Of a stretch of 64,000 bases of DNA, positions 42,781 through 63,103 are shown piece after piece. Within the stretch, counting starts at the first letter, position 1; every line of letters starts with the position of its first letter. Origin of the DNA: Aegilops tauschii subsp. strangulata (Eukaryota > Streptophyta > Magnoliopsida > Poales > Poaceae); the NCBI RefSeq assembly GCF_002575655.3, contig NC_053040.3, positions 457,174,780 through 457,238,779 on the forward strand, in the 5' to 3' direction. Made by a program: the position numbers and the translations under genes. The notes below the pieces were generated by a model. That model saw only the letters and a program-made list of their open reading frames with translations, ran no database searches and had not been told where the DNA came from.

Positions 42781-42807
42781 CCGTGATCACTTGGGCGGTG
42801 ATCACGG
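42781..42807. repeat. Perfect 10-bp hairpin in element E LTR
   Basis: CCGTGATCAC and GTGATCACGG flank a 7-base spacer. Each arm also contains the palindrome TGATCA. Confidence 0.8.
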
Positions 42808-43516
42808 GTTTATACTTATATACTATATACATGACACATGTGGTGACTAAAGTCGGGTCGGCTCGTAGGAGTACCCGCAAGTGGATCTTTGTGCCGGAGC
42901 GACAGGGCAGGTTGAGACCGCCTAGGTGAGAGGTGGGCCTGGCCCTGGTCGGCGTTCGCGGATACTTAACACGCATAACGAGATCTTGGTATTTGATCTG
43001 AGTCTGGCCATTGGGTCTATACGCACTAACCATCTACGCGGGAGTAGTTATGGGTATCCCGGCGTCGTCGTATCAGCCGAAGCCTTCGTGACATCAGCGA
43101 CTGAGTGGCGCGCGCCGCATTGGACTGTAAGCTCGCGCTTGTATTAAGGGGGCTAGGTCTGCTTCCGGCCGCGTACGCAACGTGCAGGTGTGCAATGGGC
43201 GATGGGCCCAGACCCCTGTGCGCATAGGGTTTAGACCGGCGTGCTGACCTCTCTGTTGTGCCTAGGTAGGGCTGCGACGTGTTGATCTTCCGAGGCCGGG
43301 CATGACCCAGAAAAGTGTGTCCGGCCAAATGGGATCGAGCGTGGTGGGTTATGTGGTGCACCCCTGCAGGGAAGTTTATCTATTCGAATAGCCGTGTCCC
43401 TCGGTAAAAGGACGACCCGGAGTTGTACCTTGACCTTATGACAACTAGAACCGGATACTGAATAAAATACACCCTTCCAAGTGCCAGATACAACCCGGTG
43501 ATCGCTCTCTAACAGG

Positions 43517-46500
43517 TGTGACGTCCGGATTTTTGAGATATAGTTTCCCAAAAAAAACGGCCTTTGTGCCCACCAACCCCAGGATGACTGTTAGCTGATG
43601 AGGCACCAACTTGATACAAGAATTCGAAGCAGGGTACAAAAATATGTAGTACAAGACCATTGAGGCCTAGGAGTACAACACTGGGTTTCTAATGATAGAG
43701 GGCGGAAGCGGTTGGATACATCTGCGTCTATGGGACTCCATTTCCCACAAGAACAGCTGACCAGGATAACTCCTATCTTCGCGAGGCTGCAAATGTCAAC
43801 ACGTAGGTTCCGAGGTTGTCACCGCGATGCTTATCTCCAAGCAAGAAATCTGGCCAAGACAATAGCCAGGGACAAGCCACTGAGTACGTTTGAATGTACT
43901 CGCAAACATTAAGAACACGGGTATAATATATCAAACATGCTCCGGATTAAATTAGGTGATCACACGTCTGTCACGAAATATACAAAAAACCATGATGCAC
44001 ACATGTGGTTAAAAAAAATACTCCAAAGTAAAATACTGGGTGACAGACGAGGGTCTGAATGACTCCTCGAGAGGAAACTGCAAGAATAGTAATACTGGTG
44101 CCAAACGAGGGTCTGAATGACTCCTCGAGAGGAAACTGCAAGAATAATAATGCCGCAGTCGGGCGTCGGGGCGACACCACATAAAGGGCTTATAAAAGAT
44201 AAAAGAACAACAAGCATGCCGCAGTCGGGCGTCTGAGCGACACCACAGAAAGGGCTTATAAGACAATCATCACAGTGAATATCCAGGAGGTAGAACCATC
44301 CCAGGGATACTCAAAACAAAATACATAATGTAAATGGTTAGTCCAAAATAATAAAGATCACAATCCATATGTGCCACAATCATAAACAATATTTAGTTCA
44401 ATCGTTTCTCCATCCGAAAACCGATAATTTGGTCTAGTCAAGCCGTATCTCCATCCGAATACCGTTACTATGATCCAGTTAGCCGTGTCTCCATCCGAAA
44501 ACCATCACTGAGTTCTAGCTAATTCGTTCTCCATCCGGATACCGTTACTAGATTTAACTCAGACTTTGGTCCTTACTCAAGAACATGACTATCCAACAGG
44601 ATATATCCTCTGCAGAGGGAGTACAATTTTTTCCACGAGTAACGGGTTTACTTAGTCCATCGGGACTAATTCCGTCTACCGTCTTTTAATTGAAAACACG
44701 CCTGACCTGCACACACCAGCTTAACTCACCGGTGTCTGGAATCACCCACGACACCTGCCAAGCAAAACTCTAAGTGGGGAGGCTACAACCTCGACGTAGC
44801 ATGGGATCAAATTTCTATTCGCGCGCTCTAAGGGGGTGCCCCCCCTCTCGGTCCCAACCGGAAACACCCATGCCCCCGGACCAGGTGGCCTGCCTACCGG
44901 ATGCACCCGGTATCTTCCACCATGGCCTCTCTGTACGGTGTGTGCTTTGGTAAGGGGTTGACAACCTACTGAACCATACCCCGTCTACGACAGGGACAAG
45001 TGGTGGTACCAACAAATAAAGAAGCTACTGACCAAGACTCGATCTACGACCGACTCAGGTGGTCCAAGTATCCTCCAACAATATTACCATTTATGAAATA
45101 AATCACCACTCCTCAAGCCTCACCATGCCATACCGGACATACTCGTCTCGACGAGGGACTAGGGACAAGCTCGTGTCTACCCAAGACCACGACTTTCCCG
45201 GCTTCCTTCCGGTGTGCATGAGGAGCTCACGAGGATGATCCAAATCACTAGTGTATCCATTGCTGACCACAAAACAACTCCAAAGTGTACTCATGTACGA
45301 GACTATATCGATACATAAAGCTAACGCATACCCCAAGTCAAAAGGTGTTGTGATCGTATCAGAACACCACAAAAAAATATTATGCCAGAGTTCAGAAATT
45401 CTTGCCTTCAAGAGTATGCAAAGGATGCACTTTTTGGAAGCTTTCCCTTTTCTCCAAAATCCTATTTTGCAAAATATCCAAATAACAAATATTTCAAACA
45501 CAGTACCAAAAGTTGTCTCAAATATTTTTGAAATAAATCTTAAAATAAACTAGATGAAATTTGAGAGAGGTAGGAAAAAGAATCAACTCATTTGGAGTTT
45601 TATTTTAAAAGTTATAGCTGGTCAAAGTATGGTCAAACTCTGCTTTTTTTAAATAAAACCAGAAAAGAAAACGTTTCGAGGGGAATACGCTTTCGCAGCA
45701 GAGGAAACGTACTCGGTGTTTTGCGCTATCACTTAACCAGAGAGGGCGGGCGCGCGGGTCACTGACAGTGGGTCCAGAGGGCCCACTGGTTAGGTTTGAC
45801 CGTTCTTTTCTCCCTCCTCTTTCCCTCTGCCCGAACGGCGGCGGCCTCCGGCGATCGCCGTCGACGAACGGTGGCTCTCCACGGGCACCCGATGGCGGGG
45901 ATGGAATGGCCAGACTGGGGCGGTCCCCTTGGTGGTCGCTGGGTCGTCGGAGGTGGAAGGAATCACCGGCGGCGAGCTCCGCGGCGGAGGGGGCTACGGT
46001 GGTGAAGTGGTTTTTGTGCTCCGGTGGTCTCCGACCGGAGTTGGGTAGTTGGGCAGCTCCGCAAGGACTAGGGGAAACTACTGGCGGCGCTGGTTGGGCG
46101 AAAGAGTGGCTGGCTGCAACGAATTTCACCGGCTCTTGGCGGCGGCCGAATCGGCCGGAGTTGGGGAAGAGAGCCTCTCCGGGCCAAACCACTGCCTGGG
46201 GAGCTCTAGAGGGAAGGTTGGAGGTCGCCTGAGTGCTCGGAGGGGCTCGGGGTTCCCTTTTATAGCGTGACGGGGCTGGCTCCGCGGCGGTGGATAAGAT
46301 CGACGACGGGTCGCCGTTGCTGTAGTTGCAGGGCGTCGTGGCGGCGACGAACGCGTGCCGACGAGCATGAGGATAAGCACGGGCTGCTTCCTGGGGCAGC
46401 TGGCGCGCTGGTGTGGTTTGGGCTGAGCAGAACATGGCAGAGGCCGCTGCCGACGCCGGCGTGCCGCCAAGTGCTCTGCCAGCGGCGCTGCAGGGCGCCA

Positions 46501-47687
46501 GAGCTGGCGTGGAGGGGGAAGCGAGCTAGTGCGCGGTTCAGCGGTGGAGCAGGGGCCAGGGACGGGTCGTGTCGAGTGCGGCAGTGCAGCGCGGCGGCTT
46601 AGTGCGCGCGCGTGCAAAACGTGCGCTCTGGGCGCGCCCAGAGCAAGCACGACATCTGCTCGACGAAATGCCAGGGCGGTCTAGAGCGCGAGGGTGGAGC
46701 TGGCAAATAACAGGACTAGGATAGGGGCAACTAGGAGCTCAATGGACACGGTGGCTGGGTCATTGGAGTAAGTTCACAGTGCAAACTAGAAAACATGCCT
46801 CAAGCTGACTGTGCATACCAAGTGTTCGACAGAATGCCAAGTGCACTTAGGCAACTCTTGGAGTGGCCAAAGTCTCCAGATCAGGGTCTCTTTAGATGCA
46901 GGAGATGGTGGTAAGATCACTTGGGCAAAACCAGAAACTTGTTAGTGCAAGTTTTGCAAAACTCCAGTTTTGGATAGAAAGAAAAAGGGTTTAAAGCATG
47001 CACTTTTAAACCCCTAATGAGTCCACTCTCCTGGACTTATGGGTTTTGAAGGGAGGGCTACAAGTAGGAAAAAGCTCAGGGTTACTAGAGCAAGGAAAAA
47101 TAAGGTTGCAGTACAAATCACCAAATTGGACCAGAATGCAAAAGAGGTTGATCCACTCAAATTTCTCAAAGAACATCACTGGGTTTTTGCTTGAAGATGA
47201 ATTGTATGCATCCACTGACATCTCCAAACACTTGGAAGAATTTTTAAAGAAATATTTAAATGGGTTGTAGTGCAAAAGTGCCTACTGGACCAGATTGGAA
47301 AAGTTGGTGTAGAGCTCAAAATCTCCAATGGCCAAAAGGTATTTTTGCATAAAAGTGGTGTGGAAACATCACATTACATCCCCAAATTTTGGTGGAAATT
47401 TTAAATGCATTTGTCAAGTGGTTGTAGTGCAAAACAGGCTCAAAATGCAAAAGAAATCCTTTTATAAGGATAAGGCTCTGAGAACACAATTCTTGCAAAT
47501 TTAAAACCACTGAGAAAGAATTTGTTTTATCATAGAGAGTATTCAAGTCCAACAATACTCCTTGAAGGTTTTTCCACTTGAAGTAAAATTCACAATAACA
47601 AAAGGGTAAATCTTGACAAATGGAAAAGTTTTATTTCCTGGCAACATTTTAATAGATAAAACAAGGCCAAAATTTTGGGGTGTCACA
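43517..47687 (-). repeat. Element F 3' LTR (element sense), left copy
   Basis: Plus-strand ends tgtgacgtccgg and ggggtgtcaca. Minus-strand TATA box CTATAAAAGGG at 46258-46264. Clustered 'ccatccga' repeats (44410-44550) and a duplicated block (44040-44240: cgagggtctgaatgactcc and gccgcagtcgggcg) lie near the 5'-proximal side. Frames in the GC-rich part (45770-46650) appear in both LTRs and look non-coding. Confidence 0.92.
46258..46264 (-). promoter_or_regulatory. TATA box, left LTR of element F
   Basis: The minus strand reads CACGCTATAAAAGGGAACC; the identical box is at 53812-53818 in the right (5') LTR, where it would start the element RNA near 53785. Confidence 0.7.
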
Positions 47688-48260
47688 ACACTACCCCCCT
47701 TAAGAAAAATCTCGTCCTCGAGATTTGTTAAAAGCTGTTTTGAACAAGAACTGTTTTGAAATAAATTTGTTTTTATCAAAGAAATCCTTCAATTGCAAAA
47801 AAACAAAACGGTTACAGTGAGAGGGCAATAAGTGGTGTAAAACCACAGTGTGTTACACTGGCGTAGTGTGGAAAAATCCACGGTTAGGGAAAACGAGATA
47901 TTTCTACGCAGATACAGTAATTTAGAATAAATTCTAAATTACCAAAATACGCTGGTCGCACCCGAGAGCACAGTGCTCTCTTTGGCTGACAGGTGGACCC
48001 AGGGCCCACTGTCGGCCTCTTCTCCTACCTCTGGCCCTCTCTTCTCTCTCGCGTGCTCTCCCGCGCTTCCTCCACCGGCGATGCCTAGCTCGTAGGGCAT
48101 CGAGGCCGTACCGTGGTAGTGCGCGGCGTGCTAGCTGCCGGTGCAGCGTGTACTCACCTCGCGGGCCAGGGCGCTATCGGCACTGCTCGCGGACTCGCCT
48201 CCGAACACCGGCGGTTGAGCGACGAGTGGCGCTGGTGGACCTCGCCCACCGTACACCGAT
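47688..48260 (-). other. Element F polypurine tract and 3' internal non-coding part
   Basis: The minus strand reads TTAAGGGGGGTAGTG next to the LTR, preceded by the palindromic AAATCTCGAGGACGAGATTT (47708-47727). The remainder to 48260 shows no coding sequence I can support; it is upstream DNA of the plus-strand TATA box at 48268. Confidence 0.65.
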
Positions 48261-48267
48261 CTCGGGC

Positions 48268-48274
48268 TATAAAA
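48268..48274 (+). promoter_or_regulatory. TATA box before the small membrane-protein ORF
   Basis: ctcgggcTATAAAACGATCG on the plus strand, about 105 bp before the ATG at 48376. The stretch between is pyrimidine-rich (ctcctctcttcttcctcaca) with no intervening ATG, as in a plant 5' leader. Confidence 0.6.
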
Positions 48275-48375
48275 CGATCGCGGTGCTCCTCTCTTCTTCC
48301 TCACACCTGGCCTCGTTCCTACTCCTCCTTCTTTCTCCTCCATTGCTGCTAGCTGGAGCTCGAGCCGAGGCTCTA

Positions 48376-48537
48376 ATGGCGGAGGCAATGCCGGACTGGT
48401 ATGTGGCCCTGGTGTGTGGAGGCTTGGCCGTGCTGCTGGGGTTCTCCGTGCTCCTGTGCGCGATGATCCTGGATGATCGTCGTGATGCTGCCGGACGAGT
48501 GTTAGCTCTTCGCGGTGGCGGCGATCACGTGGATTAG
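48376..48537 (+). CDS. Small predicted membrane protein, 53 residues, opposite strand to element F
   Basis: Begins MAEAMPDWYVALV, the first ATG after the TATA box. Residues 9-32 form one uninterrupted hydrophobic segment (YVALVCGGLAVLLGFSVLLC...) flanked by acidic residues before and DDRRD after, so a single-pass membrane peptide is the simplest reading. The rest is a short Gly/Arg/Asp tail ending GGGDHVD. The frame is also open upstream to 48148, but that part precedes the promoter. It is encoded antisense to F, after the two other accessory genes in element order. I recognise no family; the function is unknown. It could be chance, but promoter, leader, start and a helix-length hydrophobic segment occur together. 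Confidence 0.5.
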   Translation: MAEAMPDWYVALVCGGLAVLLGFSVLLCAMILDDRRDAAGRVLALRGGGDHVD

Positions 48538-48956
48538 GCGCGGCCTCGGGGCTGACTGCCGTCGGTGTGCTGGGGCAGCTCACGCTCGAATGAACACTCA
48601 CAAATCTCTCTTACTGAGACTGTGGTGTCCTCGAGTGTGGTTAGACAGGCGCAAAAATGTGCTCAAGGATTTGTGATAGTGCTCGAGGTCGAGTGGTGGC
48701 TACTGAGAGTTTGCTGTTACGGTGTTGCGCGAATAAAAAATCTATGTCGTGAAAATACATACGCAGCAGTGACTCGGGGAAAGAAATCTCCCCGAAAACA
48801 TGTTGCGAGAGAAAAAAATAATTAAAACAAAACTAACAGCAGTAAAACTGTTCACATAACAGGAACTAAAGAAAAACGGATCCATCGCACAAAAATTTAC
48901 GAACATGCTGTAACACATAAATACAAGTACTGGGGCAATAAATACATCGGAGGCGT
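48538..48956. other. Gap between small membrane ORF and second accessory gene of element F
   Basis: No coding sequence recognised. It would hold the 3' ends of two convergent transcripts; AT-rich stretches (48720-48930) contain possible polyadenylation-like aataaa on both strands. Confidence 0.5.
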
Positions 48957-49589
48957 TTACAAAGAAAACGGCAAAAAGACAGGGTCCTGAGAAAACGCCT
49001 CTGGCACTGGGGCATACTCCTCTTCTATCAGGGGAAGCGGGTTGACCAGCCGATGAATGCGCCCTTCTTGGTCAGGCCTCAGGGGTCTGCCAATAGCGGT
49101 CCGAGGATTTAAATCAGCGATGCTCTGGAGGTAACCCATTACCCGCTGAGTTAAACGCTCCTGAGCGATAACGTACTGGGCAAGGTTGGCCAGTACTGGA
49201 TCTCTCTCAATGCGCCCACCGGGAAAAGATGCAACTTCTCCGGGTGCTGCGCGACTCGGAAAATAATAGTATCCTCGCTCGCTGGCATAGGGCACTGCGA
49301 ATCGAAGACGAGTGAGCGCCACGTACGCAGCAACTTCTATAGCCATATGTGGAGTCGGCATGGATTTCCCCATGAAGGAGACTTCCGTTGGGTCTTGGTT
49401 TGGGTACGCGGGAGGGATGTGCACCACTGCCCAATATTTCGAGGTGGAAGGTGTGATCCTTGATTTGAGCAACTCGTACTGGGGTGGGTGGGTGGCACTC
49501 ATAGTACTGCAGGTAAAGTCCCACAATAATTTAACAAAACTGCCGGGGGTTGCGTCTGGGGTTCTCAGATAAATACTGGGGGTTGACAT
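48957..49589 (-). CDS. Accessory protein F2 of element F, dsRNA-binding-like, 210 residues
   Basis: ATG at 49589 (ttgccATGTCAACC), about 70 bp after a minus-strand TATA box. It aligns nearly gaplessly with the F1 and E proteins: PPQY at 35-38, KYWAVVHI at 51-58 and helix MAIEVAAYVALTRLR at 82-96. A predicted helix, three strands and a C-terminal helix with AAxxAL match the layout of a double-stranded-RNA-binding domain (inference). Downstream come GYYYFPSRAAPGEV, a helical segment (VLANLAQYVIAQERLTQRV) and an acidic end. An in-frame extension upstream to 49667 overlaps the TATA box and is unlikely to be translated. Intact, no stops. Binding RNA inside the particle or shielding it from silencing is possible but untested. 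Confidence 0.7.
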   Translation of the reverse strand: MSTPSIYLRTPDATPGSFVKLLWDFTCSTMSATHPPQYELLKSRITPSTSKYWAVVHIPPAYPNQDPTEVSFMGKSMPTPHMAIEVAAYVALTRLRFAVPYASERGYYYFPSRAAPGEVASFPGGRIERDPVLANLAQYVIAQERLTQRVMGYLQSIADLNPRTAIGRPLRPDQEGRIHRLVNPLPLIEEEYAPVPEAFSQDPVFLPFSL

Positions 49590-49655
49590 GGCAAGGAATG
49601 GTTGTGAGTGCTGCGCACAAAGGTGAGGGGTGCTCGGCAAGGTCACGAAGTGGCC

Positions 49656-49663
49656 TTTATATA
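49656..49663 (-). promoter_or_regulatory. TATA box of accessory gene F2
   Basis: The minus strand reads GGTGCTATATAAAGGCCAC, 67-74 bp before the ATG at 49589. The 49664-49959 stretch upstream has no coding sequence and is probably promoter. Confidence 0.65.
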
Positions 49664-49959
49664 GCACCGGGGCTGGGTTATCTACCGGGGTGAAGGGTAA
49701 CTGGCTGCCGATCCTGTTCTCGGTTCAAAACCACAGATATACATATCACATAAATGTGACGTATTACTGTGGGTGCCGACGGGGTTGGTCTTGGTAGCTG
49801 TGCCCGAAAATTAAAAATGCATCTGTACGATAACGTACACATGCATTGCTACTACTCCAAAGCTAGGAGCGTTCAAGCAGACCGCATGTAATAAAAGCGA
49901 TACAAGACCACATCATTACAAAGCGTAGGAAAACTAAGGCTCGATACAACTCGAGCGAC

Positions 49960-50754
49960 TTAGTCTACTTCGTTAATGTCTAAGTGGGCTGGCCTTGCGG
50001 ACGCCGGTGCTTCACCACGGTTCTCACCGTCGGGATTTGCTGGCTGAGGCTGAGGGGTTGCAGAGTCGGGGAAATGGTGATGACCATCGCGGGGGTTGTT
50101 GGCCACAATCCCGTTGGAATGGGTTCCCAAAAGGCGACGAAGCGCTTCTGGGGTCACCAAAGCACTCTGGTTGAGGGCTGGCGCGGACCTCAAAGGATCG
50201 ATCGGGTGTCCGAACAACACGACTGGGTTGTCGGCGTCGGACTCCGCTTCCCTTCTCGCCGGGGCTTGGCGAACCAGTTCTCCACGAGCTGCGATCAGAT
50301 CAAGGGTGACCTGATCGAATAGTTGCTCTAGTGCGCTTACATAGCGCACCAGATGTAACAGCGCAGGATCTGTCTCGTGGTCCCCGTTGGCAACCTGGGG
50401 CGGCCTACCATACCCGTCACGACTAGGGTAGTAGTAGAACGAGCGACAGTTAACTCTGGGCGACAAGTGCCGGAGTTGGACTATAGCTTCTCGGGCTGCC
50501 AGTTGGATGGCTTGTGGCTCAAAGGAAGTTGTCCTTCCAGTGAACCTGTAGGGGCGTTCTGGCGACAGACACCTACCGTAGATGTGCACAGTGGCCCAGT
50601 ACTGACGGCTCTCACCGTACATGGGTCCCTGGTACACAACATACTCAGGAGGCTCCTCTAACGCATAGGCACGGCGGGTGAGGTTTGCGAGCACGGTCAC
50701 AAAACCTCCAAGGTTGGTTGCTGTGGTCTCATTGTGAACAATGGGACCAGGCAT
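49960..50754 (-). CDS. Accessory protein F1 of element F, dsRNA-binding-like, 264 residues
   Basis: ATG at 50754 (ccacgATGCCTGG), about 60 bp after a TATA box. From that Met it aligns with the element E protein without a gap to residue 95: PPEY at 35-38, QYWATVHIY at 51-59 and helix QAIQLAAREAIVQLR at 81-95, the pattern expected for a dsRNA-binding fold (inference). It continues with SFYYYPSRDGYG, a probable helical segment (LLHLVRYVSALEQLFDQVTLDL), and a Pro/Asn/Asp-rich tail ending DINEVD. The frame is open upstream to 50946, past the TATA box, so I prefer the later start. Intact. It is the first gene after the primer site in element order. Confidence 0.72.
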   Translation of the reverse strand: MPGPIVHNETTATNLGGFVTVLANLTRRAYALEEPPEYVVYQGPMYGESRQYWATVHIYGRCLSPERPYRFTGRTTSFEPQAIQLAAREAIVQLRHLSPRVNCRSFYYYPSRDGYGRPPQVANGDHETDPALLHLVRYVSALEQLFDQVTLDLIAARGELVRQAPARREAESDADNPVVLFGHPIDPLRSAPALNQSALVTPEALRRLLGTHSNGIVANNPRDGHHHFPDSATPQPQPANPDGENRGEAPASARPAHLDINEVD

Positions 50755-50812
50755 CGTGGCTTGGTTTGGGGGAAAGAGGCTGTGCGGTGCTGTGTTTGAG
50801 GCTAGCGTGCCC

Positions 50813-50820
50813 TTTTTATA
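50813..50820 (-). promoter_or_regulatory. TATA box of accessory gene F1
   Basis: The minus strand reads TTCCCTATAAAAAGGGCACG, 59-66 bp before the ATG at 50754. Spacing is like that of F2. Confidence 0.65.
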
Positions 50821-51055
50821 GGGAAAGGGGACGGAGTCTTCCTCCACACGCTTGCGATAGAGACTGGTTGGGTGTCGGTCACTGGCGCGTGATCGATGGG
50901 CTAGGCTGATAGGTTGGGCACCGTCCGCCGCAAGGCGTCGGGTCACTGTGGGGCTATCTTACGCGAGAAGCTTGGCGGGACTAGGTTAAGGTCTGATGGT
51001 TTGGTTAACCTAGGTTTATTAACCTGGCTAAGATAGGATTAGCCAATGGTCAGCC

Positions 51056-51070
51056 TGGCTCTGATACCAA
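51056..51070 (-). other. Element F primer-binding site (tRNA-iMet type)
   Basis: The minus strand reads TTGGTATCAGAGCCA three bases after the LTR end. 50821-51055 between it and the F1 promoter has no coding sequence; it contains ggttaacctaggtttattaa-type repeats. Confidence 0.88.
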
Positions 51071-51073
51071 GTC

Positions 51074-54000
51074 TGTGACGTCCGGATTTTTGAGATAGAG
51101 TTTCCCAAAAAAAATGGCCTTTGTGCCCACCAGCCCCAGGATTACTGTTAGCTGATGAGGCACCAACTTGATACAAGAATTCCAAGCAGGGTACAAAAAT
51201 ATGTAGTACAAGGCCATTGAGGCCTAGGAGTACAACACTGGGTTTCTAATGATAGAGGGCGGAAGCGGTTGGATACATCTGCGCCTATGGGACTCCATTT
51301 CCCACAAGAATAGCTCACCAGGATAACTCCTATCTTCGCGAGGCTGCAAATGTCAACACGTAGGTTCCGAGGTTGTCACCGCGATGCTTATCTCCAAGCA
51401 AGAAATCTGGCCAAGACAATAGCCAGGGACAAGCCAGTGAGTACGTTTGAATGTACTCGCAAACATTAAGAACACGGGTATAATATATCAAACATGCTCC
51501 GGATTAAATTAGGTGATCACACGTCTATCACGAAATATACGAAAAACCATGATGCACACATGTGGTTAAAAAAATACTCCAAAGTAAAATACTGGGTGCC
51601 AGACGAGGGTCTGAATGACTCCTCGAGAGGAAATTGCAAGAATAGTAATACTGGTGCCAAACGAGGGTCTGAATGACTCCTCGAGAGGAAACTGCAAGAA
51701 TAATAATGCCGCAGTCGGGCGTCGGGGCGACACCACATAAAGGGCTTATAAAAGATAAAAGAACAACAAGCATGCCGCAGTCGGGCATCCGAGCGACACC
51801 ACAGAAAGGGCTTATAAGAGAATCATCACAGTGAATATCCAGGAGGTAAAACCATCCCAGGGATACTCAAAAAAAAATACATAATGTAAATGGTTAGTCA
51901 GAAATAATAAAGATCACAATCCATATGTGCCACAATCATAAACAATATTTAGTTCAGTCGTTTCTCCATCCGAAAACCGATAATTTGGTCTAGTCAAGCC
52001 GTATCTCCATCCGAATACCGTTACTATGATCCAGTTAGCCGTGTCTCCATCCGAAAATCGTCACTGAGTTCTAGCTAATTCGTTCTCCATCCGGATATCG
52101 TTACTAGATTTAACTCAGACTGTGGTCCTTACTCAAGAACATGACTATCCAAAAGGATATATCCTCTGCAGAGGGAGTACAATTTTTTTCCACGAGTAAC
52201 GGGTTTACTTAGTCCATCGGGACTAATTCCGTCTACGCTCTTTTAATTGAAAACACGCCTGATCTGCACACACCAGCTTAACTCACCGGTGTCTGGAATC
52301 ACCCACGACACCTGCCTAGCAAAACTCTAAGTGGGAAGGCTACAACCTCGACGTAGCATGGGATCAAATTTCTATTCGCGCGCTCTAAGGGGGTGCCCCC
52401 CCTCTCGGTCCCAACCGGAAACACCCATGCCCCCAGACCAGGTGGCCTGCCTACCGGATGCACCCGGTATCTTCCACCATGGCCTCTCTGTACGGTGTGT
52501 GCTTTGGTAAGGGGTTGACAACCTACTGAACCATACCCCGTCTACGATAGGGACAAGTGGTGGTACCAACAAATAAGGATGCTACTGACCAAGACTCGAT
52601 CTACGACCGACTCAGGTGGTCCAAGTATCCTCCAGCAATATTACCATTTATGAAATAAATCACCACTCCTCAAGCCTCACCATGCCATACCGGACATACT
52701 CGTCTCGACGAGGGACTAGGGACAAGCTCGTGTCTACCCAAGACCACGACTTTCCCGGCTTCCTTCCGGTGTGCATGAGGAGCTCACGAGGATGATCCAA
52801 ATCACTAGTGTATCCATTGCTGACCACAAAACAACTCCAAAGTGTACTCATGTACGAGACTATATCGATACATAAAGCTAACGCATACCCCAAGTCAAAA
52901 GGTGTTGTGATTGTATCAGAACACCACAAAAAAATATTATGCCAGAGTTCAGAAATGCTTGCCTTTAAGAGTATGCAAAGGATGCACTTTTTGGAAGCTT
53001 TCCCTTTTCTCCAAAATCCTATTTTGCAAAATATCCAAATAACAAATATTTCAAACACAGTACCAAAAGTTGTCTCAAATATTTTTGAATAAATCTTAAA
53101 ATAAACTAGATGAAATTTGAGAGAGGTAGGAAAAAGAATCAACTCATTTGGAGTTTTATTTTAAAAGTTATAGCTGGTCAAAGTCTGGTCAAACTCTGTT
53201 TTTTTAATAAAACCAGAAAAGAAAACGTTTCGAGGGGAATACGCTTTCGCAGCAGAGGAAACATACTCGGTGTTTTGCGCTATCACTTAACCAGAGAGGG
53301 CGGACGCGCGGGTCACTGACAGTGGGTCCAGAGGGCCCACTGGTCAGGTTTGACCGTTCTTTCCTCCCTCCTCTTTCCCTCTGCCCGAACGGCGGCGGCC
53401 TCCGGCGATCGCCGTCGATGAACGGTGGCTCTCCACGGGCACCCGAGGGCGGGGATGGAACGGCCAGACTGGGGCGGTCCCCTTGGTGGTCGCTGGGTCG
53501 TCAGAGGTGGAAGGAATCGCCGGCGGCGAGCTCCGCGGCGGAGGGGGCTACGGTGGTGAAGTGGTTTTTGTGCTCCGGTGGTCTCCGACTGGAGTTGGGT
53601 AGTTGGGCAGCTCCGCAAGGACTAGGGGAAACTACTGGCGGCGCTGGTTGGGCGAAAGAGTGGCTGGCTGCGACGAATTTCACCGGCGCTTGGCGGCGGC
53701 CGAACCGGCCATAGTTGGGGAAGAGAGACTCTCCGGGCCAAACCACTGCCTGGGGAGCTCTAGAGGGAAGGTTGGAGGTCGCCTGAGTGCTCGGAGGGGC
53801 TCGGAGTTCCCTTTTATAGCGTGACGGGGCTGGCTCCGCGGCGGTGGATAAGATCGACGACGGGTCGCCGTTGCTGTAGTTGCAGGGCGTCGTGGCGGCG
53901 ACGAACGCGTGCCGACGAGCATGAGGATAAGCACGGGCTGCTTCCTGGGGCAGCTGGCGCGCTGGTGTGGTTTGGGCGGTGCCGAACATGGCAGAGGCCG

Positions 54001-55241
54001 CTGCCGACGCCAGCGTGACGCCAAGTGCTCTGCCAGCGGCGCTGCAGGGCGCCAGAGCTGGCGTGGAGGGGGAAGCGAGCTAGTGCGCGGTTCAGCGGTG
54101 GAGCAGGGGCCAGGGACGGGTCGTGTCGAGTGCGGCAGTGCGGCGCGGCGGCTTAGTGCGCGCGCGTGCAAAACATGCGCTCTGGGCACGTCCAGAGCGC
54201 GCACGGCATCTGCTCGACGAAATGCCAGGGCGGTCTAGAGCGCGAGGGTGGAGCTGGCAAATAACAGGACTAGGATAGGGGCAACTAGGAGCTCAATGGA
54301 CAAGGTGGCCGGGTCATTGGAGTAAGTTCACAGTGCAAACTAGAAAACATGCCTCAAGCTGACTGTGCATACCAAGTGTTCGAAAGAATGCCAAGTGCAC
54401 TTAGGCAACTCTTGGAGTGGCCAAAGTCTCCAGATCAGGGTCTCTTTAGATGCAGGAGATGGTGGTAAGATCACTTGGGCAAAATCAGAAACTTGGTAGT
54501 GCAAGTTTTGCAAAACTCCAGTTTTGGACAGAAAGAAAAAGGGTTTAAAGCATGCACTTTTAAACCCCTAAGGAGTCCACTCTCCTGGACTTATGGGTTT
54601 TGAAGGGAGGGCTACAAGTAGGAAAAAGCTCAGGGTTACTAGAGCAAGGAAAAATAAGGTTGCAGTACAAATCACCAAATTGGACCAGAATGCAAAAGAG
54701 GTTGATCCACTCAAATTTCTCAAAGAACATCACTGGGTTTTTGCTTGAAGATGAATTGTATGTATCCACTGACATCTCCAAACACTTGGAAGAATTTTTA
54801 AAGAAATATTTAAATGGGTTGTAGTGCAAAAGTGCCTACTGGACCAGATTGGAAAAGTTGGTGTAGAGCTCAAAATCTCCAATGGCCAAAAGGTATTTTT
54901 GCATAAAAGTGGTGTGGAAACATCACATGACATCCCCAAATTTTGGTGGAAATTTTAAATGCATTTGTCAAGTGGTTGTAGTGCAAAACAGGCTCAAAAT
55001 GCAAAAGAAATCCTTTTATAAGAATAAGGCTCTGAGAACACAATTCTTGCAAATTTAAAACCACTGAGAAAGAATTTGTTTTATCATAGAGAGTATTCAA
55101 GTCCAACAATACTCCTTGAAGGTTTTTCCACTTGAAGTAAAATTCACAATAACAAAAGGGTAAATCTTGACAAATGGAAAAGTTTTATTTCCTGGCAACA
55201 TTTTAATAGATAAAACAAGGCCAAAATTTTGGGGTGTCACA
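51074..55241 (-). repeat. Element F 5' LTR (element sense), right copy
   Basis: 4168 bp, collinear with 43517-47687. Plus-strand ends tgtgacgtccgg and ggggtgtcaca, then the target duplication acagg. TATA box at 53812-53818 (minus). Confidence 0.93.
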
Positions 55242-55246
55242 ACAGG

Positions 55247-55942
55247 GCGACGAGGAGTGGATCGCCGGGTAGGATTATGCTATGCGATGCTACTTGGAGG
55301 ACTTCAATCTACTCTCTTCTACATGCTGCAAGATGGAGATGGCCAGAAGCGTAGTCTTCGGCAGGACTAGCTATCCCCCTCTTATTCTGGCATTCTGCAG
55401 TTCAGTCCACTGATATGGCCCTGTACACATATACCCATGCATATGTAGTGTAGCTCCTTTGCTTGCGAGTACTTTGGATGAGTACTCACGGTTGCTTCTC
55501 TCCCTCTTTTCCCCTTTCCCTTTTACCTGGTTGTCGCAACCAGATGCTGGAGTCCAGGAGCCAGACGCCACCGTTGACGACGACTCCTACGACACTGGAG
55601 GTGCCTACTACTACGTGCAGCCCGCTGACGACGACCAGGAGTAGTTAGGAGGATCCCAGGCAGGAGGCCTGCGCCTCGTTCGATCTGTATCCCAGTTTGT
55701 GCTAGCCTTCTTAAGGCAAACTTGTTTAACTTATGTCTGTACTCAGATATTGTTGCTTCCGCTGACTCGTCTCTGATCGAGCACTTGTATTCGAGCCCTC
55801 GAGGCCCCTGGCTTGTATTATGATGCTTGTATGACTTATTTATGTTTTAGAGTTGTATTGTGATATTTTCCGGTGAGTCCCTGATCTTGATCGTACACAT
55901 TTGCATGCATGATTAGTGTACGGTCAAATCGGGGGCGTCACA
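55247..55942 (+). repeat. Element E 5' LTR, second part
   Basis: Continues the LTR after F and ends ATCGGGGGCGTCACA. It contains the possible exon at 55544-55644. Confidence 0.9.
55544..55644 (+). other. Possible small exon 2 in element E LTR (acidic peptide end)
   Basis: Preceded by a pyrimidine tract and acceptor (ggttgtcgcaaccag). In phase with exon 1 it encodes an Asp/Tyr-rich peptide (DAGVQEPDATVDDDSYDTGG, then AYYYVQPADDDQE) ending at TAG 55642-55644. Where the transcript would begin is not clear. Confidence 0.35.
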
Positions 55943-56277
55943 AGTTGGTATCAGAGCCGACTGCCTGTAGGAATCCCCCTTTCCACACTCCTTGGCCGAA
56001 GTCGAGTCTAGACATTACAAAACTTTTACTAACATGGCTGTGTGTCTTACGGGCCCTCATCGCCATTGGGTGGTACTAGGATCTTTTACTCCTCGACCTT
56101 TACTCTGGGACTCTGAACTCTCTTCTACTCGGGTTAAACGAATTTACTAACTCTAACACTAGGATCCCGTGACCGCATTCACCCCAAAGTTGGATAAGCC
56201 ATAGTTGTTTCTTAGAATAGTATTTTGAACAATTCACACACTGTCATTTGACTCCTTTGAAACGTCTTTGCTTTCAG
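55943..56277 (+). other. Element E primer-binding site and leader
   Basis: ttggtatcagagccgac starts three bases after the LTR (PBS core 55946-55958, tRNA-iMet type). The rest of the leader has no coding sequence. It ends in a good splice acceptor (gtctttgctttcag) directly before the ATG at 56278. Confidence 0.85.
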
Positions 56278-57033
56278 ATGGAACTCACGAGGCAGGTCGT
56301 GCGCCACACGACGACCATTGGTGCCTCGGGATCACAGGCTGTGCTAGCTGAGATGATGACCTATTTGGGTTATCGCTGGCACCCTGAGTACACCGTCTAC
56401 GAGGAGTACCAGGACTTGAACCAGGAGCAGTACCGTGCCATCGTCCACCTCTACTCGCGGGAGTATGACTCCACTACTGTGCTGCACACCGCTCATGGTG
56501 TTGGAGGGACCATCGATATGGCTGTCCACGATGCTGCCTATGCTGCTCTGACACGTCTTCGTGGAGAGTATTGGGAGTTGGACACCTCCCCTTTCAGGCA
56601 CATTGCTATCGCATCTGATGTTGGTGCGGAGGGATACTATACTGCTGCCTACTCCACTGTCACCCGAGAGCCCTTCTACCATCAGAACCTGGTTCTGCAT
56701 GCTGATGGGCTGGATCGAGCTAACCGAGCTCTTCGCCACGAGTTGTACACCACCCGTCAGCACCTTTGCCGTGCTCTGACGCTGCTGCACCCCTTTGTCC
56801 GATCTAGGGAGCTGCCCCGTTCTGCGATCTACCCAGCCAGGACTGTGATGCCCAAGGGTGTCGGCTGGCCAGATGTGGGAGGCCACTCTCCTGCACTTGG
56901 ACCTCTTCTGCCTCCTGAGCGTCAGGTTCTGCACCAGAGTATTCGCGGACCCCAGGTTGCTGATGTGGAGTTCCCGATGCGACACTACCAGCTTTCAGGC
57001 TACACCTACCTCCACAGTACCTCTTGGGACTGA
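56278..57033 (+). CDS. Accessory protein of element E, dsRNA-binding-like, 251 residues
   Basis: The ATG at 56278 follows a pyrimidine tract and CAG, so it may be the first codon of a spliced mRNA; there is no nearby TATA box. HPEY (35-38), QYRAIVHLY (51-59) and the helix MAVHDAAYAALTRLR (81-95) fall at exactly the same residue numbers as in F1 and within one residue in F2. The arrangement helix, strands, AA-containing helix resembles a dsRNA-binding domain (inference). The second half has a likely helical stretch (GLDRANRALRHELYTTRQHLCRALTLL) and a Pro-rich end. Intact. It lies between primer site and gag, 251 bp before the gag ATG. Its role in the element's cycle is unknown. Confidence 0.75.
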   Translation: MELTRQVVRHTTTIGASGSQAVLAEMMTYLGYRWHPEYTVYEEYQDLNQEQYRAIVHLYSREYDSTTVLHTAHGVGGTIDMAVHDAAYAALTRLRGEYWELDTSPFRHIAIASDVGAEGYYTAAYSTVTREPFYHQNLVLHADGLDRANRALRHELYTTRQHLCRALTLLHPFVRSRELPRSAIYPARTVMPKGVGWPDVGGHSPALGPLLPPERQVLHQSIRGPQVADVEFPMRHYQLSGYTYLHSTSWD

Positions 57034-57284: not shown

Positions 57285-60200
57285 ATGGTTAGACCAGGTG
57301 GTCGTGGTAGTGGTGGCAATGCCCCACCACCACCTGAGTACATGGCTGGTATGATCCAACAGTTTGAACTGAACCGCCAATTCATGGAAAATATGATGGC
57401 TCAGTTTCCTCGCCCCAATATGGACCAGCAACCAACCCCAGTAACTCTGCAGGATTTCATGCGCCTGAACCCAACTGTGTACCGCAGCTCAACTCAGCCT
57501 CTGGATGCTGATGAATGGCTCCGTGACATCACCTATGAGATGGAGTCCGCCAATGTAGCCCCTGCCAGCTATGTCAACTTTGCTTCCTTCTTTCTGAAGG
57601 GACCCTCAGCTCAATGGTGGGACAGCCACAGCCGTACTCTGCCAGCTGGAACAATCATCACCTGGCCAGACTTCCAAGCAGCTTTCCGTGCCCGCTTCAT
57701 TCCTCAGGGAGTCATGGACCGGAAGAAGCGTGAGTTCCGCAACCTCACCCAAGGCAACAAAACTGTTGAAGCTTATCAGCGGGAGTTTCTGTACTTGTCT
57801 CGCTATGCTGAAGAGGACATTGCAACTGATGCACGCAGACAGGAGAAGTTCCGTGATGGCCTTCAAGCTGACATCAAGCTCGCACTTCTAGTGCATGACT
57901 TTACTGATTTCGCCACCTTGGTGAACAAGGCCATCAATGTCGAAACTGGTCTGCAGGAATACCAGAGCTCTCACAGGCGCAACCGTGACACGGGCTCATC
58001 TTCGGGCCCGCCCTCACAGAAGCGTAAGATATGGATCCCGAACAGCATGTACCGTCCAAATGCATCTGCCCCGACGCAGACCAATTCTACACCTCGTCTG
58101 CCTCCACCACCATCTAGGCAGTCAAGACTTCCAGCTCCACCATCCCAAGCTCCTGTTCCCACTCCCAATAATGGTCTGTGCTACAAGTGTGGGCAACCAG
58201 GTCACCGTGCCAGGGACTGCAATCAGAATCAGAATCAACTTGCCCTTCCCGCAGCTGGCCGTGGTAACAACCAGCCCCGCAACAACAATGCTAAGTCTTA
58301 TGGTCGTGCTCATGCCAACCACGTTGATCTGAACGAAGCTCAAGACCAGCCGACTACTGTGATGGGTACACTCCTCGTAAATTCAGTACCAGCATCCGTT
58401 TTATTTGATATAGGTGCATCGCATTCATTCATGTCAGAAGATTTTGCATACAAGCACGACGTTAAATGTGAGGAGATGAACACCTCGGTATTGGTCAAAA
58501 CCCCAGTGGGACAGTGTCAAACCTCCCTGGTTGGCATCGACGTCCCCGTGGAAATCAAAGGGCTGGAATTCTATGCCTCTCCCATTATCCTGAAGTCGTC
58601 TAACATCGACCTCATTTTGGGGATGGATTGGTTGAAAGGGCATACTGCTTCAATCGTTTGCGCCACTAAGACCGTCCATCTGCTACACCCTTCAGATGAA
58701 ATAGTTGCTTACCAAGCTCATCTGGTGCAAAATGCCGAGGCCAGGCTCTATGCATTGAATGCATTGAACACTGCACCACTCGAGGGCATTGAAAACATTC
58801 CCGTCGTGCGTGAATTCCTCAACGTCTTCCCTGAAGAACTTCCAGGGATTCCCCCTGCTAGGGCTGTCGAATTCATCATCGACTTGAAACCAGGCACCAC
58901 TCCAATAGCCAAGCGACCCTACAAGATGCCGCCGCATGAACTCCTTGAGCTTAAGGAGGAAATCGACAAATCTCTTCGCAAAGGATTCATTGGCCCAAGT
59001 TGCTCTCCCTGGGGAGCACCTTCTTTCTTTGTCAAGAAGAAGGATGGGACAAACCGATTAGTTCAAGACTACCGTCCTATAAACCAAGCTACCATTCAGA
59101 ATAAATACCCTCTTCCTCGGATCAATGATCTGTATGATCAACTGGCGGGTTCGTCAGTGTTCTCTAAGCTCGACTTGAGGTTGGGTTACCACCAGATCCG
59201 TGTTCGCGAAGAGGATATCCCAAAGACCGCCTTCGTGACTCACTATGGTTCATACGAGTACACCGTCATGTCTTTCGGTTTAACCAATGCTCCAACCACC
59301 TTCTCTCATCTGATGAACTATATATTCATGGATTACCTCGACAAGTTCGTCATGGTTTATCTGGATGATATCCTGGTATTTTCCAAGAACGAAGAAGAAC
59401 ATGCTGAACATCTTCGACTTGTGCTGGAAAAGCTACGAGAGCATCAACTATATGCCAAGTTCTCCAAATGTGAATTCTGGCTACCCGAAGTAACCTATCT
59501 TGGGCATGTCATCTCTAAGGATGGTATTGCCGTCAACCCTGAACGAGTCCAGGCTATCCTTGATTGGACTCCTCCCAAGAACGTTAAGCAAGTCAGAAGT
59601 TTTCTCGGTCTCGCCAGCTATTGTCGTCGATTCGTCGAGAACTTCTCCAAGATCGCCAGGCCTCTGACTAACCTGTTGCATAAGGGCGTCAAGTTCCAAT
59701 GGACAGACAAATGTCAGGAAAGTTTCCAGGCACTCAAAGACAAGTTGACTTCTGCCCCAGTTCTAGCTCCACCTGATACTAAGAAGGACTTCGTCATTTA
59801 CTGCGACGCTTCCCATGAAGGATTAGGCTGTGTCCTAATGCAAGACCGCAAAGTGATTGCTTATGCCTCTAGGCAATTGCGCCCTCACGAAGAGAACTAC
59901 CCAGTTCACGACCTCGAACTTGCTGCTGTCATTCATGCGCTGAAGCAGTGGCGACATTACCTTCTCGGTAATCGTTGCGAGATCTTCACTGACCACCAAA
60001 GTCTGAAGTATCTGTTTACTCAGCCAGACATGAACCTCCGTCAGCAGAGATGGATGGAGCTTGTTGCAGACTTTGACTTGGGTATTTCCTATACGCCAGG
60101 CAAGGCTAATGTAATGGCTGATGCCTTGAGCCGCAAGTCTTACTGCAACCACCTCCAGGTTCACAAAGTTCAGCCCTCGCTTGTTGAAGAATTCAGGAAG

Positions 60201-61673
60201 CTAAACCTCCATATTGTTCCTCCGGGTGCACTCGCTCCCCCTCCTAAGGAGTTTGGCAAGATGAACCTCCACGTTGTTACCCAGGGTTCCCTCAATACCC
60301 TAGTTGCTAAACCAGATCTCGTGGACAGCATCAAAAGGCTACAGAAGTATGACTCTGAAGCCCACAAGATTAAGCGCTACCTCGCTGAACGAAAGCCCTC
60401 ATTCTTCACTGTTGCTGATGACGGCACCTTGTACTTCAAAGGCTGCCTAGTGGTGCCGTGTAAGGAGAAAAACCTGGATATGACACAGGAGGTTATGAAA
60501 GAAGCTCATGATACGCCTCTATGTATCCATCCTGGTAGTACAAAGATGTACCAAGACATCCGTCAGAGATTCTGGTGGTCTAATATGAAGCAAGACATTG
60601 CTCGATATGTTGCTGAGTGCGACGTTTGCCGTCGTATCAAAGCAGAACATCAAAGACCTGCTGGAACTCTGCAACCTATCTCTATTCCTGAATGGAAATG
60701 GGACCATGTTGAGATGGACTTCGTCACTGGATTTCCCAAATCACAGAAAGGTAATGATGCTATTCTTGTCGTCATTGACCGGCTTTCCAAAGTTGCACAT
60801 TTCCTGGCGGTCAAAGAAACGATCACTGCTAGTCAGTTGGCAACGCTCTATATGTCCAGGATTGTTTCACTCCACGGTATTCCATTGGTTATCAGTTCAG
60901 ACCATGGCAGCTTGTTCACTTCAAGATTCTGGGCAAGTTTCCAAGAAGCTATGGGAACTCATCTGTCATTCAGTACTGCGTTTCATCCTCAGTCGCAAGG
61001 GCAAGTTGAACGCGTCAACCAAGTTCTCGAAGACATGCTTCAAGCTTGTGTTATTTCCTTCGGCAAGAAATGGGAGGAATCTCTCCCGTATGCTGAGTTC
61101 TCTTATAATAATAGCTATCAAGCTAGTCTGAAGATGGCCCCCTTCGAAGTGTTATATGGACGAAAGTGCCGAACCCCTCTGAACTGGTCAGAAACTGGGG
61201 AGCGCCCACTCTTCGGTCCGGATATTATCCAACATGCCGAAGAACAAGACCGCATTATTCGTGAGAATCTCAAGACTGCTCAGTCACGTCAGAAGAGTCA
61301 GTATGACCGTCATCATAAAGACATGGTCTATCAACCTGGCGAAAAGGCTTATCTTCGAGTCACACCAATGAAGGGTGCTCACCGCTTTGGAATCAAGGGC
61401 AAACTAGCTCCTCGATATATTGGCCCATTCACTATTCTGGAAAGGCGTGGAAAAGTGGCATACCAACTGGAGCTTCCGCCGAACCTTTCTCAGGTTGACG
61501 ATGTGTTCCATGTGTCACAGCTCCCACGTTGCTTCAAGGACCCAATCCGAGCAGTGGATCATGAAATGCTCGAATTGCAGCAGGACCTCTCCTATAAGGA
61601 GCATCCGGTCCGCATTCTCGACCAAGCTGAACTCCGCACACGTCAGAAGGCGATCAAGTTCCTCAAAGTCTAG
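57285..61673 (+). CDS. Element E gag-pol polyprotein, 1462 residues, ends inside the chromodomain
   Basis: The ATG at 57285 (cagATGG after ttatatattag) is preferred over 57222 because a splice acceptor precedes it. Order: gag domain ([14 protein letters not shown] ... [12 protein letters not shown] ... [10 protein letters not shown]), zinc knuckle [14 protein letters not shown] (58179-58220), protease with active site DIGA (58407-58418; usually D-S/T-G-A), reverse transcriptase with YLDD (59358-59369), RNase H ([11 protein letters not shown] ... DHQSLKYLF) and integrase HHCC. Integrase D, D, E are at 60717, 60900 and 61008 (D-X35-E). The chromodomain begins EHPVRILDQ and is cut by TAG 61671-61673. 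All other blocks are uninterrupted. The altered protease motif and this stop suggest that the copy is recent but impaired. Confidence 0.93.
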
Positions 61674-61798: not shown

Positions 61799-63103
61799 TG
61801 TAACGACTGGATAATCATGCTACAGTAATCCCACGCTAATCATGCCACGTCACCTCTGTTACTGTTGCTAACCTCACAATGATTCGAAACCGTTCCAAAA
61901 TTTAAATTCTAAATAGTGGTAAACACCCAAAGTTTTCAAAAGTCAGAACAAAAATGTTCGGTGGGTGCCAAATAAGGCATAGTTAATTATGGTGAAGTAA
62001 ACAAATTTTTGGAAAATGCCTAAATATTTTAAAATGATGTAAAACAGAAAAGAAAAGAAAGCTAACAAAAAAAGAAAGGGAAAAGGAGCCCCCCCCACTG
62101 GGCCGTGGCCCAACTTGGCCGAACGGCCTCGGCCCACCAGGCCACCAGGCCGGCCCATCAGCCGCGCACATATCCCCCACTACCCCAAACCCTAACCCCC
62201 CACCGACACCCCACTCTCCCCCGATCCAGATCGGATCGGGCTCGACCCCGTCGCCCCGCTCGCCCCCGACGCCGCCCCGACGACCCCGTCGCCCCGCTCG
62301 CCCCCGACGCCGCCCCGACGACCTCGTCGCCCCGCTCGCCCCGACGCCGTCCCGACGACCCCGTCGCCCCGCTCGCCCCCGACGCCGCCCCGATGACCCC
62401 GCGCCCCGCGACCACGCCGCCTCGCCGTTGGACGTCGCCACGCCGGAGCTCCTCCGCCGGCCTGCTTCCTCCTCCCCACCGGCCTGCTCCCACGTCGGCC
62501 GTCGTCCCCGTCCCCCACCTCGAGCCCCGCTGCCCAGTCCCCTGCAACCCCTGTGAGCGCCACCCTCATCTCCCTCTCTGACCCCACGCCGGAGTCGCCC
62601 TCGACGGGACTCGCTCGCCCGCGTGCTCCCGCAGCTCCACCCGAGCCCTACGCCGTGCCCCGCTTCCTCCCCTCTCCCTCGCGCCTGCCCGCCTTCCCGT
62701 GCTGCGCGCGCGCTCGTCGCCGCGACCACCGCACACCTGCGCCCCGTGCACGCCCGTCGCCGCGTTGTCCCGCTACTCCCTCGTCCACCCCGGCCTCGCC
62801 GTCCTTGCCGCGCTCGACGCCCGCCCGCGCCGTTCGCGCCTCGCGCGTGGCCTCCCCCCTGGTCACCCCGCGCCCCCTTCGCTCCCCCCGCTCTCCCTCT
62901 ACGCGCGCGCACGCGCTCGCGCCCTTCTGGCTTGGCCACGGCCCCTCCCCCTCCACGCGCGGCCGTGCCCGCCGCCGGCAGGCCGTCCTGGCCACTGGCC
63001 TCGCCCGCGCCGCACATGCGCGCCGCGCCCACGCCCGCCTGTGGCCCCTGGGCCACTGCCAGGGGGGCCTCGCGCCCCTGAGCCACTGCCCCTGGGCCCG
63101 AAC
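61799..63103 (+). repeat. Element E 3' LTR, first part (cut by element G)
   Basis: Starts TGTAACGACTGGATAATC and follows 40540-41815 closely, with indels in the CGCCCCGACGACCC-type repeat (62230-62400), which has more units here. It stops at the insertion of G; left flank cgaac. Confidence 0.92.

What the first reader, a model, noticed from the sequence alone, without database searches (positions are those of the whole stretch)
48957..57033. A three-member accessory protein family shared by a chromovirus (E) and a gag-pol-less element (F)
The proteins at 56278-57033 (E), 49960-50754 (F1) and 48957-49589 (F2) align from their first Met. P-x-Y is at 36-38, Y-x-A-x-V-H at 52-57, and an AA-containing helix ending L-R at 81-95 (F2 shifted by one residue). 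E and F1 need no gap over 95 residues although most positions differ, so the family is old and kept under constraint. The order helix, P-x-Y strand, strands, AA-helix resembles a double-stranded-RNA-binding domain. A dsRNA-binding protein carried by a retrotransposon could bind its genome or block small-RNA silencing.
Basis: partly seen in the sequence, partly recalled or inferred. Interest (0 to 1): 0.9.

Follow-up and report, generated by a model that had tools for sequence, protein, structure and literature searches.

The report
dsRBD-like proteins of grass retrotransposons
Two nested jumping elements in a large plant genome carry three related, selectively maintained proteins whose core looks like a double-stranded-RNA-binding fold without its usual RNA-gripping residues; one of the elements carries two of them and no replication genes.

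Summary
The three ORFs align from Met1, and an HMM of E's relatives alone finds only E, F1 and F2 (E <= 1) among 864 segments of the window. E is ORF0 (5'aORF) of a long-LTR gypsy element, as in rice Retrosat2/RIRE3/RIRE8. F is a complete 11.7-kb element (TSD ACAGG) with two ORF0 paralogues and no gag-pol. All three are under purifying selection: omega 0.53 (E), 0.27 (F1), 0.18 (F2); E's gag 0.47.
Prior art: PMC11728184 (2024) reports weak DRBM-like matches for maize and sorghum Tekay 5'aORFs. New here, as far as my searches show: the constrained duplication in a gag-pol-less element, lost RNA-binding residues, lysine scarcity in E and F1, and a conserved TTTCAG|ATG start.

The parts
40540..43516 (+). 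E 5' LTR, first part (interrupted by F); starts TGTAACGCCC
55247..55942 (+). E 5' LTR, last part; ends GTCACA (about 3.67 kb in all)
55946..55958 (+). E primer binding site TGGTATCAGAGCC (initiator-Met tRNA type, recalled)
56272..56277 (+). TTTCAG directly before the ORF0 ATG, 3'-splice-site-like; in 25 of 25 E-type loci (window included) and 3 of 3 loci of a diverged subfamily
56278..57033 (+). E: ORF0 / 5'aORF protein, 251 aa; dsRBD-like domain about residues 15-106, long helix 135-176 in the model
57285..61673 (+). E gag-pol (gag, zinc knuckle, protease, RT, RNase H, integrase); an in-frame stop ends it inside a chromodomain-like stretch
61799..63102 (+). E 3' LTR; similarity to the 5' LTR ends at 63102, probably at another insertion
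43517..55241 (-). F: complete gag-pol-less LTR element, 11.7 kb, LTRs 4.17 kb, 1.94% apart
51074..55241 (-). F 5' LTR (TGTGACACCCC...GTCACA)
43517..47687 (-). F 3' LTR
43512..43516 (.). F target-site duplication ACAGG, left copy
55242..55246 (.). F target-site duplication ACAGG, right copy
51057..51069 (-). F primer binding site TGGTATCAGAGCC
49960..50754 (-). F1: ORF0 paralogue, 264 aa, at the ORF0 position (319 bases after the LTR)
48957..49589 (-). F2: second ORF0 paralogue, 210 aa, where gag would lie

Best explanation
E encodes ORF0 (5'aORF) of a Retrosat2/Tekay-like grass element. F is a non-autonomous long-LTR element without gag-pol that carries two ORF0 paralogues, one at the ORF0 position and one where gag would be. 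Shown: homology of the three, element anatomy, purifying selection. Supported by a model: a dsRBD-like fold for E. Inferred: F1 and F2 share that fold. Inferred, moderately: the domain is a degenerate dsRBD that binds protein (itself or a host partner such as DCL or DRB proteins) rather than dsRNA, followed by a coiled-coil-like helix. Inferred: the proteins act mainly in cis, on the RNA or particle of the element that makes them, because a freely shared protein would leave a gag-pol-less parasite little reason to keep two such genes of its own. Most likely role: the protein stays with the element's RNA or particle and hinders its processing by the host silencing machinery. For E it may be made from a spliced RNA whose acceptor abuts the ATG. 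E and F1 (not F2) are nearly lysine-free, which could slow ubiquitin-dependent turnover.
Against: No Foldseek hit reaches E 0.001 (best 8.8e-3 in PDB; 3.9e-3 in BFVD to an unnamed protein). E's model averages pLDDT 57. F1's model averages 43 and its fold comparison lists Era, MamM/MamB, zinc-transporter and OsmC-like domains, not dsRBDs, so F1's fold is not independently confirmed; F2 was not modelled. Every Pfam dsRBD hit is below its cut-off, E and F1 themselves have none, and unrelated families score as well in some relatives (DUF6007 E 0.0039, Thump_like 0.043). hhalign probabilities to dsRBDs are only 18, 2 and 66; for the F1 family the score 18.5 is close to the best shuffle (17.4) and to the reversed profile (16.7). 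PDB sequence searches with E, F2 and three profiles find no dsRBD. The F1 and F2 domains are slightly basic (net +2), so RNA binding through other residues is not excluded. Cis action, splicing, host targets and the effect of lysine scarcity are inferred only.
Confidence: 0.5

Rival explanations
1. ORF0 is an RNA-binding accessory protein (nucleocapsid-like or silencing suppressor) that binds the element's own structured or double-stranded RNA.
For: dsRBD-like fold of E; arginine-rich (8.6% and 9.5% R in full-length E-family and F1-family members); F1 and F2 domains net +2; viral DRBM and RNase III proteins are among the BFVD matches, none at E <= 0.001.
Against: The two region-3 positions that carry at least one K/R in each of 11 reference dsRBDs (alignment) carry V/I and D/E/N in the E family (K/R 0 of 23 at each) and mostly E and P in the F1 family (K/R 1 of 55 at each). 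E-family domain net charge is -8 to -1 (21 of 24 members).
Confidence: 0.25
2. ORF0 is a structural or oligomerisation factor of the virus-like particle (dimerising dsRBD fold plus coiled coil) with no link to silencing.
For: Long helix 135-176 after the domain in E's model; the seven top VIA rows are dsRBDs from protein complexes or with protein-binding roles: Loquacious dsRBD3, TRBP dsRBD3, DRB7.2:DRB4, Staufen dsRBD5, DCL4 dsRBD2 (roles partly recalled). E's constraint is close to that of its gag.
Against: F has no gag of its own, so its copies would have to serve another element's particle. No direct test.
Confidence: 0.25
3. The low omega reflects descent from a few recent master copies or selection of well-conserved copies by the search, not function.
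For: Searches scored only the best 131-150 of thousands of candidates, and I used the top 30 rows of two lists and 16 rows from the upper half of the gag list. Loci in one tandem array are not independent.
Against: Each ORF was measured in loci ranked on a different ORF, with flank-derived mutation rates and out-of-frame controls. A barley homologue covers all of F1 at 65% identity (P0029).
Confidence: 0.07

Closest known systems
ORF0 of Retrosat2 / RIRE3 / RIRE8 and homologues in maize, sorghum, Brachypodium (PMC3485330, 2012; abstract and sections 9, 10, 14 read)
   Same: A second ORF beside the gag-pol ORF of a long-LTR (over 3 kb) grass gypsy element; ORF0 far less conserved than ORF1; average Ka 0.2574 and Ks 1.6471 among four Oryza copies.
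   Different: That paper modelled ORF0 proteins as hydrolases, an acyltransferase and a transporter with differing folds. The sections read name no wheat member and no gag-pol-less element with two copies. Sequence homology to the rice ORF0 was not testable here.
Tekay 5'aORF proteins with DRBM-like structure (PMC11728184, 2024; section 2.5 read, passages elsewhere)
   Same: 5'aORF proteins of maize Tekay and sorghum Sb7 matched a soybean DRBM protein in Foldseek (TM 0.35-0.37, E 0.04-0.25); long C-terminal helix; a role in RNA-silencing modulation was suggested.
   Different: In what I read: no Triticeae, no non-autonomous carrier, no omega test, RNA-binding residues not examined. Evidence here adds solved-structure matches, shuffle controls and omega.
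Non-canonical, protein-binding dsRBDs (Loquacious dsRBD3, TRBP dsRBD3, Staufen dsRBD5, DRB7.2, DCL4 dsRBD2; Pfam Dicer_dimer)
   Same: Fold order and best structural Z; sub-threshold Dicer_dimer match of F2. That such domains lack the basic RNA-binding positions is recalled.
   Different: Host proteins; membership not shown by sequence at curated cut-offs.
LARDs (large retrotransposon derivatives, Sukkula; Kalendar et al. 2004, recalled, full text not held; described in passages of PMC7215508)
   Same: Non-autonomous Triticeae elements with about 4.4-kb LTRs and about 3.5-kb internal domain (sizes recalled); F has 4.17 and 3.39 kb.
   Different: PMC7215508 describes LARDs as encoding no protein products; F encodes two constrained proteins. 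A recalled Sukkula LTR primer is not in the window.
RLG_Sabrina NA and RLG_WHAM, mobilised by RLG_Wilma (PMC9744471, 2021; abstract and sections 2.7-2.8 read)
   Same: High-copy non-autonomous wheat gypsy elements; short Sabrina variants carry other short proteins in place of gag-pro.
   Different: Their PBS matches tRNA-Asp, here it is TGGTATCAGAGCC; Sabrina elements are 6.6-8.3 kb, F is 11.7 kb.

Membership tests
ORF0 / 5'aORF of Retrosat2-Tekay-like elements | Separate ORF between PBS and gag-pol in an element with LTRs over 3 kb | tested here: met
   E: LTR about 3.67 kb, 335 bases between LTR and ORF0, gag-pol follows.
ORF0 / 5'aORF of Retrosat2-Tekay-like elements | Chromodomain at the end of pol | tested here: inconclusive
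   A motif ATWERE follows an in-frame stop at the end of pol (motif recalled); no Pfam Chromo hit on the open part.
ORF0 / 5'aORF of Retrosat2-Tekay-like elements | Sequence homology to rice, maize or sorghum ORF0 | not testable with these tools
Canonical RNA-binding dsRBD | alpha-beta-beta-beta-alpha fold | tested here: met
   E only, on a model. F1 inconclusive; F2 not modelled.
Canonical RNA-binding dsRBD | Basic residue at one or both of the first two positions of KKxAK | tested here: not met
   11 of 11 reference domains meet it (alignment; the third lysine position is E in 6 of the 11). Residues 79 and 80: K/R 0 of 23 and 0 of 23 in the E family, 1 and 1 of 55 in the F1 family; F2 has P and H there.
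Canonical RNA-binding dsRBD | Pfam dsrm at or above the gathering score | tested here: not met
   Only sub-threshold hits: P0155 dsrm 14.5 vs 23 bits; F2 Dicer_dimer 16.3 vs 23.7.
Canonical RNA-binding dsRBD | Binds dsRNA | not testable with these tools
   Needs an assay.
LARD | Long LTRs, PBS, no gag-pol | tested here: met
   F.
LARD | Internal domain encodes no protein | tested here: not met
   F1 and F2 under purifying selection.
LARD | Sequence identity with Sukkula | tested here: inconclusive
   Recalled primer absent from the window; genome search did not complete (11 tries).
Viral-type suppressor of RNA silencing | Suppresses silencing in a plant assay | not testable with these tools
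   No assay.

The most novel reading that the evidence does not exclude
Elements like F are not coding-free parasites. They are minimal 'shield-only' retrotransposons that borrow all replication proteins but keep, under selection, two copies of their own cis-acting dsRBD mimic, one of them lysine-free, which attaches to their RNA-protein particle and disarms the host DCL/DRB machinery. Other elements filed as non-coding LARDs would then need rechecking.
Probability: 0.2. Interest if true: 0.85.

Novelty: new variant of a known kind. Interest (0 to 1): 0.6.

Why it matters
ORF0-type proteins sit in long-LTR grass retrotransposons and have no established function: one paper modelled them as enzymes, another saw a weak DRBM resemblance. 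Here the fold of one member is supported by solved structures and shuffled controls, and the loss of the usual RNA-binding residues points to a protein partner, which can be tested directly. A gag-pol-less element that keeps two of its own proteins at omega 0.2-0.3 is a sharp test case for cis preference in non-autonomous retrotransposons.

Tried and rejected
Direct dsRNA binding by a canonical dsRBD: set below the leading reading because the basic region-3 positions are lost. F = Sukkula LARD: considered from size; a recalled LTR primer is absent from the window; left open. F = Sabrina/WHAM/Wilma: set aside on PBS type and, for Sabrina, size. Fold of F1: the model was too poor; its matches (Era, MamM/MamB, zinc transporters, OsmC-like) were not used. 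PDB sequence searches with E, F2 and three profiles gave no dsRBD. Rfam at gathering threshold over 43000-63200: 0 matches. The first omega run used copies ranked on the same ORF for E and F1 and is superseded (one search gave E 0.318, F1 0.165, F2 0.189).

Rows dropped before counts. F2 5 of 30 (indel or truncation). E 2 of 16 (1 short, 1 frameshift), F1 9 of 30 (8 frameshift, 1 short), F2 3 of 30 (frameshift); copies with inner stops were kept (4, 6 and 5); 1 of 8 (frameshift); domain charge on 21 of 24 and 46 of 59 members; full-length members (230 aa or more) 12 of 24 and 53 of 59. The 16 gag-ranked loci were picked by eye from the upper half of 131 rows. A4 and A5 were hand-picked: A4 holds E, 20 of the 38 hits and 3 new hits; A5 holds F1 and 58 of the 117 hits; A2 holds E, F1, F2 and 7 relatives. 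The dsRBD reference profile holds 11 domains printed, not all that were matched.

Papers. PMC3485330: abstract, sections 9, 10, 14. PMC11728184: passages and section 2.5. PMC9744471: abstract, passages, sections 2.7-2.8. PMC6097303, PMC8268840, PMC7215508, PMC9033089: passages. PMC7264820: term search only, no hit. Others: search listings. That the duplicated gag-pol-less form and its selection test are not in print rests on searches, in the open-licence library only.
Full report
WHAT IS THERE. The window lies in chromosome-sized contig C6 of an unnamed 4.10-Gb genome; Aegilops tauschii is my guess from seven chromosome sizes, not a tool result. Two LTR elements are nested. E runs on the + strand: its 5' LTR starts at 40540, is interrupted after 43516, resumes at 55247 and ends at 55942. 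A TGGTATCAGAGCC primer site, ORF0 (56278-57033), gag-pol (57285-61673) and a 3' LTR from 61799 follow. F runs on the - strand inside E's 5' LTR, 43517-55241, with 5-bp target duplications ACAGG on both sides and LTRs of 4168 and 4171 bp that differ at 1.94% of 4170 compared sites. At the 1.3e-8 rate quoted in PMC9744471 this is about 0.75 million years.

F HAS NO REPLICATION GENES. Its 3.39-kb internal region shows no similarity to E's gag-pol (best E-value 2.4). Its two longest frames are F1 and F2. There are 319 bases between F's LTR and F1, and 335 between E's LTR and ORF0, so F1 sits at the ORF0 position and F2 where gag would be. In 30 of 30 F1 loci fetched, the window's own included, F2 is found too, in one of them as a shorter match. 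The first-look candidate counts for F1 and F2 are 8443 and 8435; these are rough, since only 145 and 150 were scored. Several copies lie head to tail at about 7.5-kb spacing, one LTR plus one internal region, as unequal LTR recombination would give.

THE FAMILY IS REAL. E and F1 share 21 of 95 residues without gaps; no shuffle of 20,000 reaches the score. Profile comparisons tie E's family to F1's (E 2.7e-9), F1's to F2 (2.4e-14) and E's to F2 (2.6e-5). An HMM of E's family, without F1 and F2, picks exactly E, F1 and F2 out of 864 segments at E <= 1. Relatives: 117 proteins for F1, the named ones from wheat, Aegilops and barley, the best barley one (P0029) at 65% identity over the whole of F1; 38 for E, down to 38%; 204 at E <= 10 for a mixed profile, 120 of them listed; and a further ORF0 subfamily in the same genome.

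SELECTION. To limit bias, each ORF was taken from loci ranked on another ORF, with mutation rates from F's flanks and two wrong frames as controls. Omega: E 0.533+-0.049 (14 of 16 loci), F1 0.272+-0.025 (21 of 30), F2 0.180+-0.023 (27 of 30). Wrong frames of the whole ORFs give 1.14 to 2.42. The dsRBD-like part is more constrained than what follows it for E (0.38 vs 0.65) and F1 (0.19 vs 0.32); for F2 the two parts hardly differ (0.16 vs 0.18). E's gag, first 400 codons in 7 of 8 loci ranked on ORF0, gives 0.465+-0.070 with wrong frames 1.21 and 1.82, so ORF0 is about as constrained as gag. Decay after insertion should push all values up. Loci in one array are not independent, and the jackknife does not correct for shared ancestry.

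WHY NOT PLAIN RNA BINDING. At the first two lysine positions of dsRBD region 3, each of the 11 reference domains keeps at least one K/R (read off the alignment; the third position is E in 6 of 11). In the E family they are V/I and D/E/N (K/R 0 of 23 at each); in the F1 family mostly E and P (K/R 1 of 55 at each). E's domain has net charge -6, F1's and F2's +2, the references -1 to +6. Lysine is scarce: E 1 in 251, F1 0 in 264, full-length E-family members median 0 (12 of 24 members, maximum 2), F1-family members median 1 (53 of 59, maximum 5); E's gag-pol has 90 in 1462. Codon-position base composition predicts about 5-6 per protein. F2, with 4 in 210 against 5.5 expected, is not clearly depleted. 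A plain K-to-R swap would have kept RNA contacts; here the positions became acidic, hydrophobic or proline.

EXPRESSION HINT. TTTCAG stands directly before ORF0's start in 25 of 25 E-type loci, the window included (in L005 the start codon reads AAG). It also stands there in 3 of 3 loci of the diverged subfamily, with CTAAT some 25 bases upstream. This looks like a splice acceptor abutting the ATG. F1 and F2 lack it. No RNA data were available.

MECHANISM. A protein shared freely would hardly be kept by a parasite that already borrows gag and pol, so constraint on F1 and F2 suggests action on the RNA or particle that encodes them. A dsRBD-like fold without the usual RNA-binding residues, close to domains that mediate contacts among DRB, Dicer and Staufen partners, plus a long helix, suggests self-association or contact with host DCL/DRB proteins. 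I rate the silencing-interference version the most likely single role, but well short of shown.

PRIOR ART. ORF0 of Retrosat2/RIRE3/RIRE8 is described in PMC3485330, which assigned it enzyme- and transporter-like models. PMC11728184 (2024) reports weak Foldseek similarity of maize and sorghum Tekay 5'aORF proteins to a soybean DRBM protein and suggests a silencing role. So the fold idea is not new; the evidence here is stronger for one member and extends to Triticeae, to a gag-pol-less carrier and to selection.

Noticed in passing
56278-57033, 49960-50754 and related proteins: E, F1 and their relatives are nearly lysine-free while arginine is abundant (about 9%); the neighbouring gag-pol has 6% lysine. 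F2 does not share this clearly.
   Followed up: partly
56272-56277; L069, L070, L071, L072: Conserved TTTCAG|ATG at ORF0 starts, with CTAAT upstream in L069, L071 and L072: possible 3' splice site.
   Followed up: partly
61602-61780: E's gag-pol frame has a stop inside its chromodomain-like end; this copy is not intact.
   Followed up: no
63102 onward: Similarity of E's 3' LTR to the 5' LTR ends here and a stretch beginning TGTTGGGAATCGTAGC follows that looks like an Angela/BARE-type LTR start (recalled).
   Followed up: no
G000 C3:514325605, 514333137, 514340669 and other places: F1 copies in head-to-tail arrays, 7532 bp apart, the size of one LTR plus one internal region.
   Followed up: no
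1-11069: Long direct repeats with a period of about 7.86 kb at the left end of the window, perhaps another LTR-internal-LTR arrangement.
   Followed up: no
L069, L071, L072: A further ORF0 subfamily in the same genome, 38-41% identical to P0155 and alike along the domain.
   Followed up: partly
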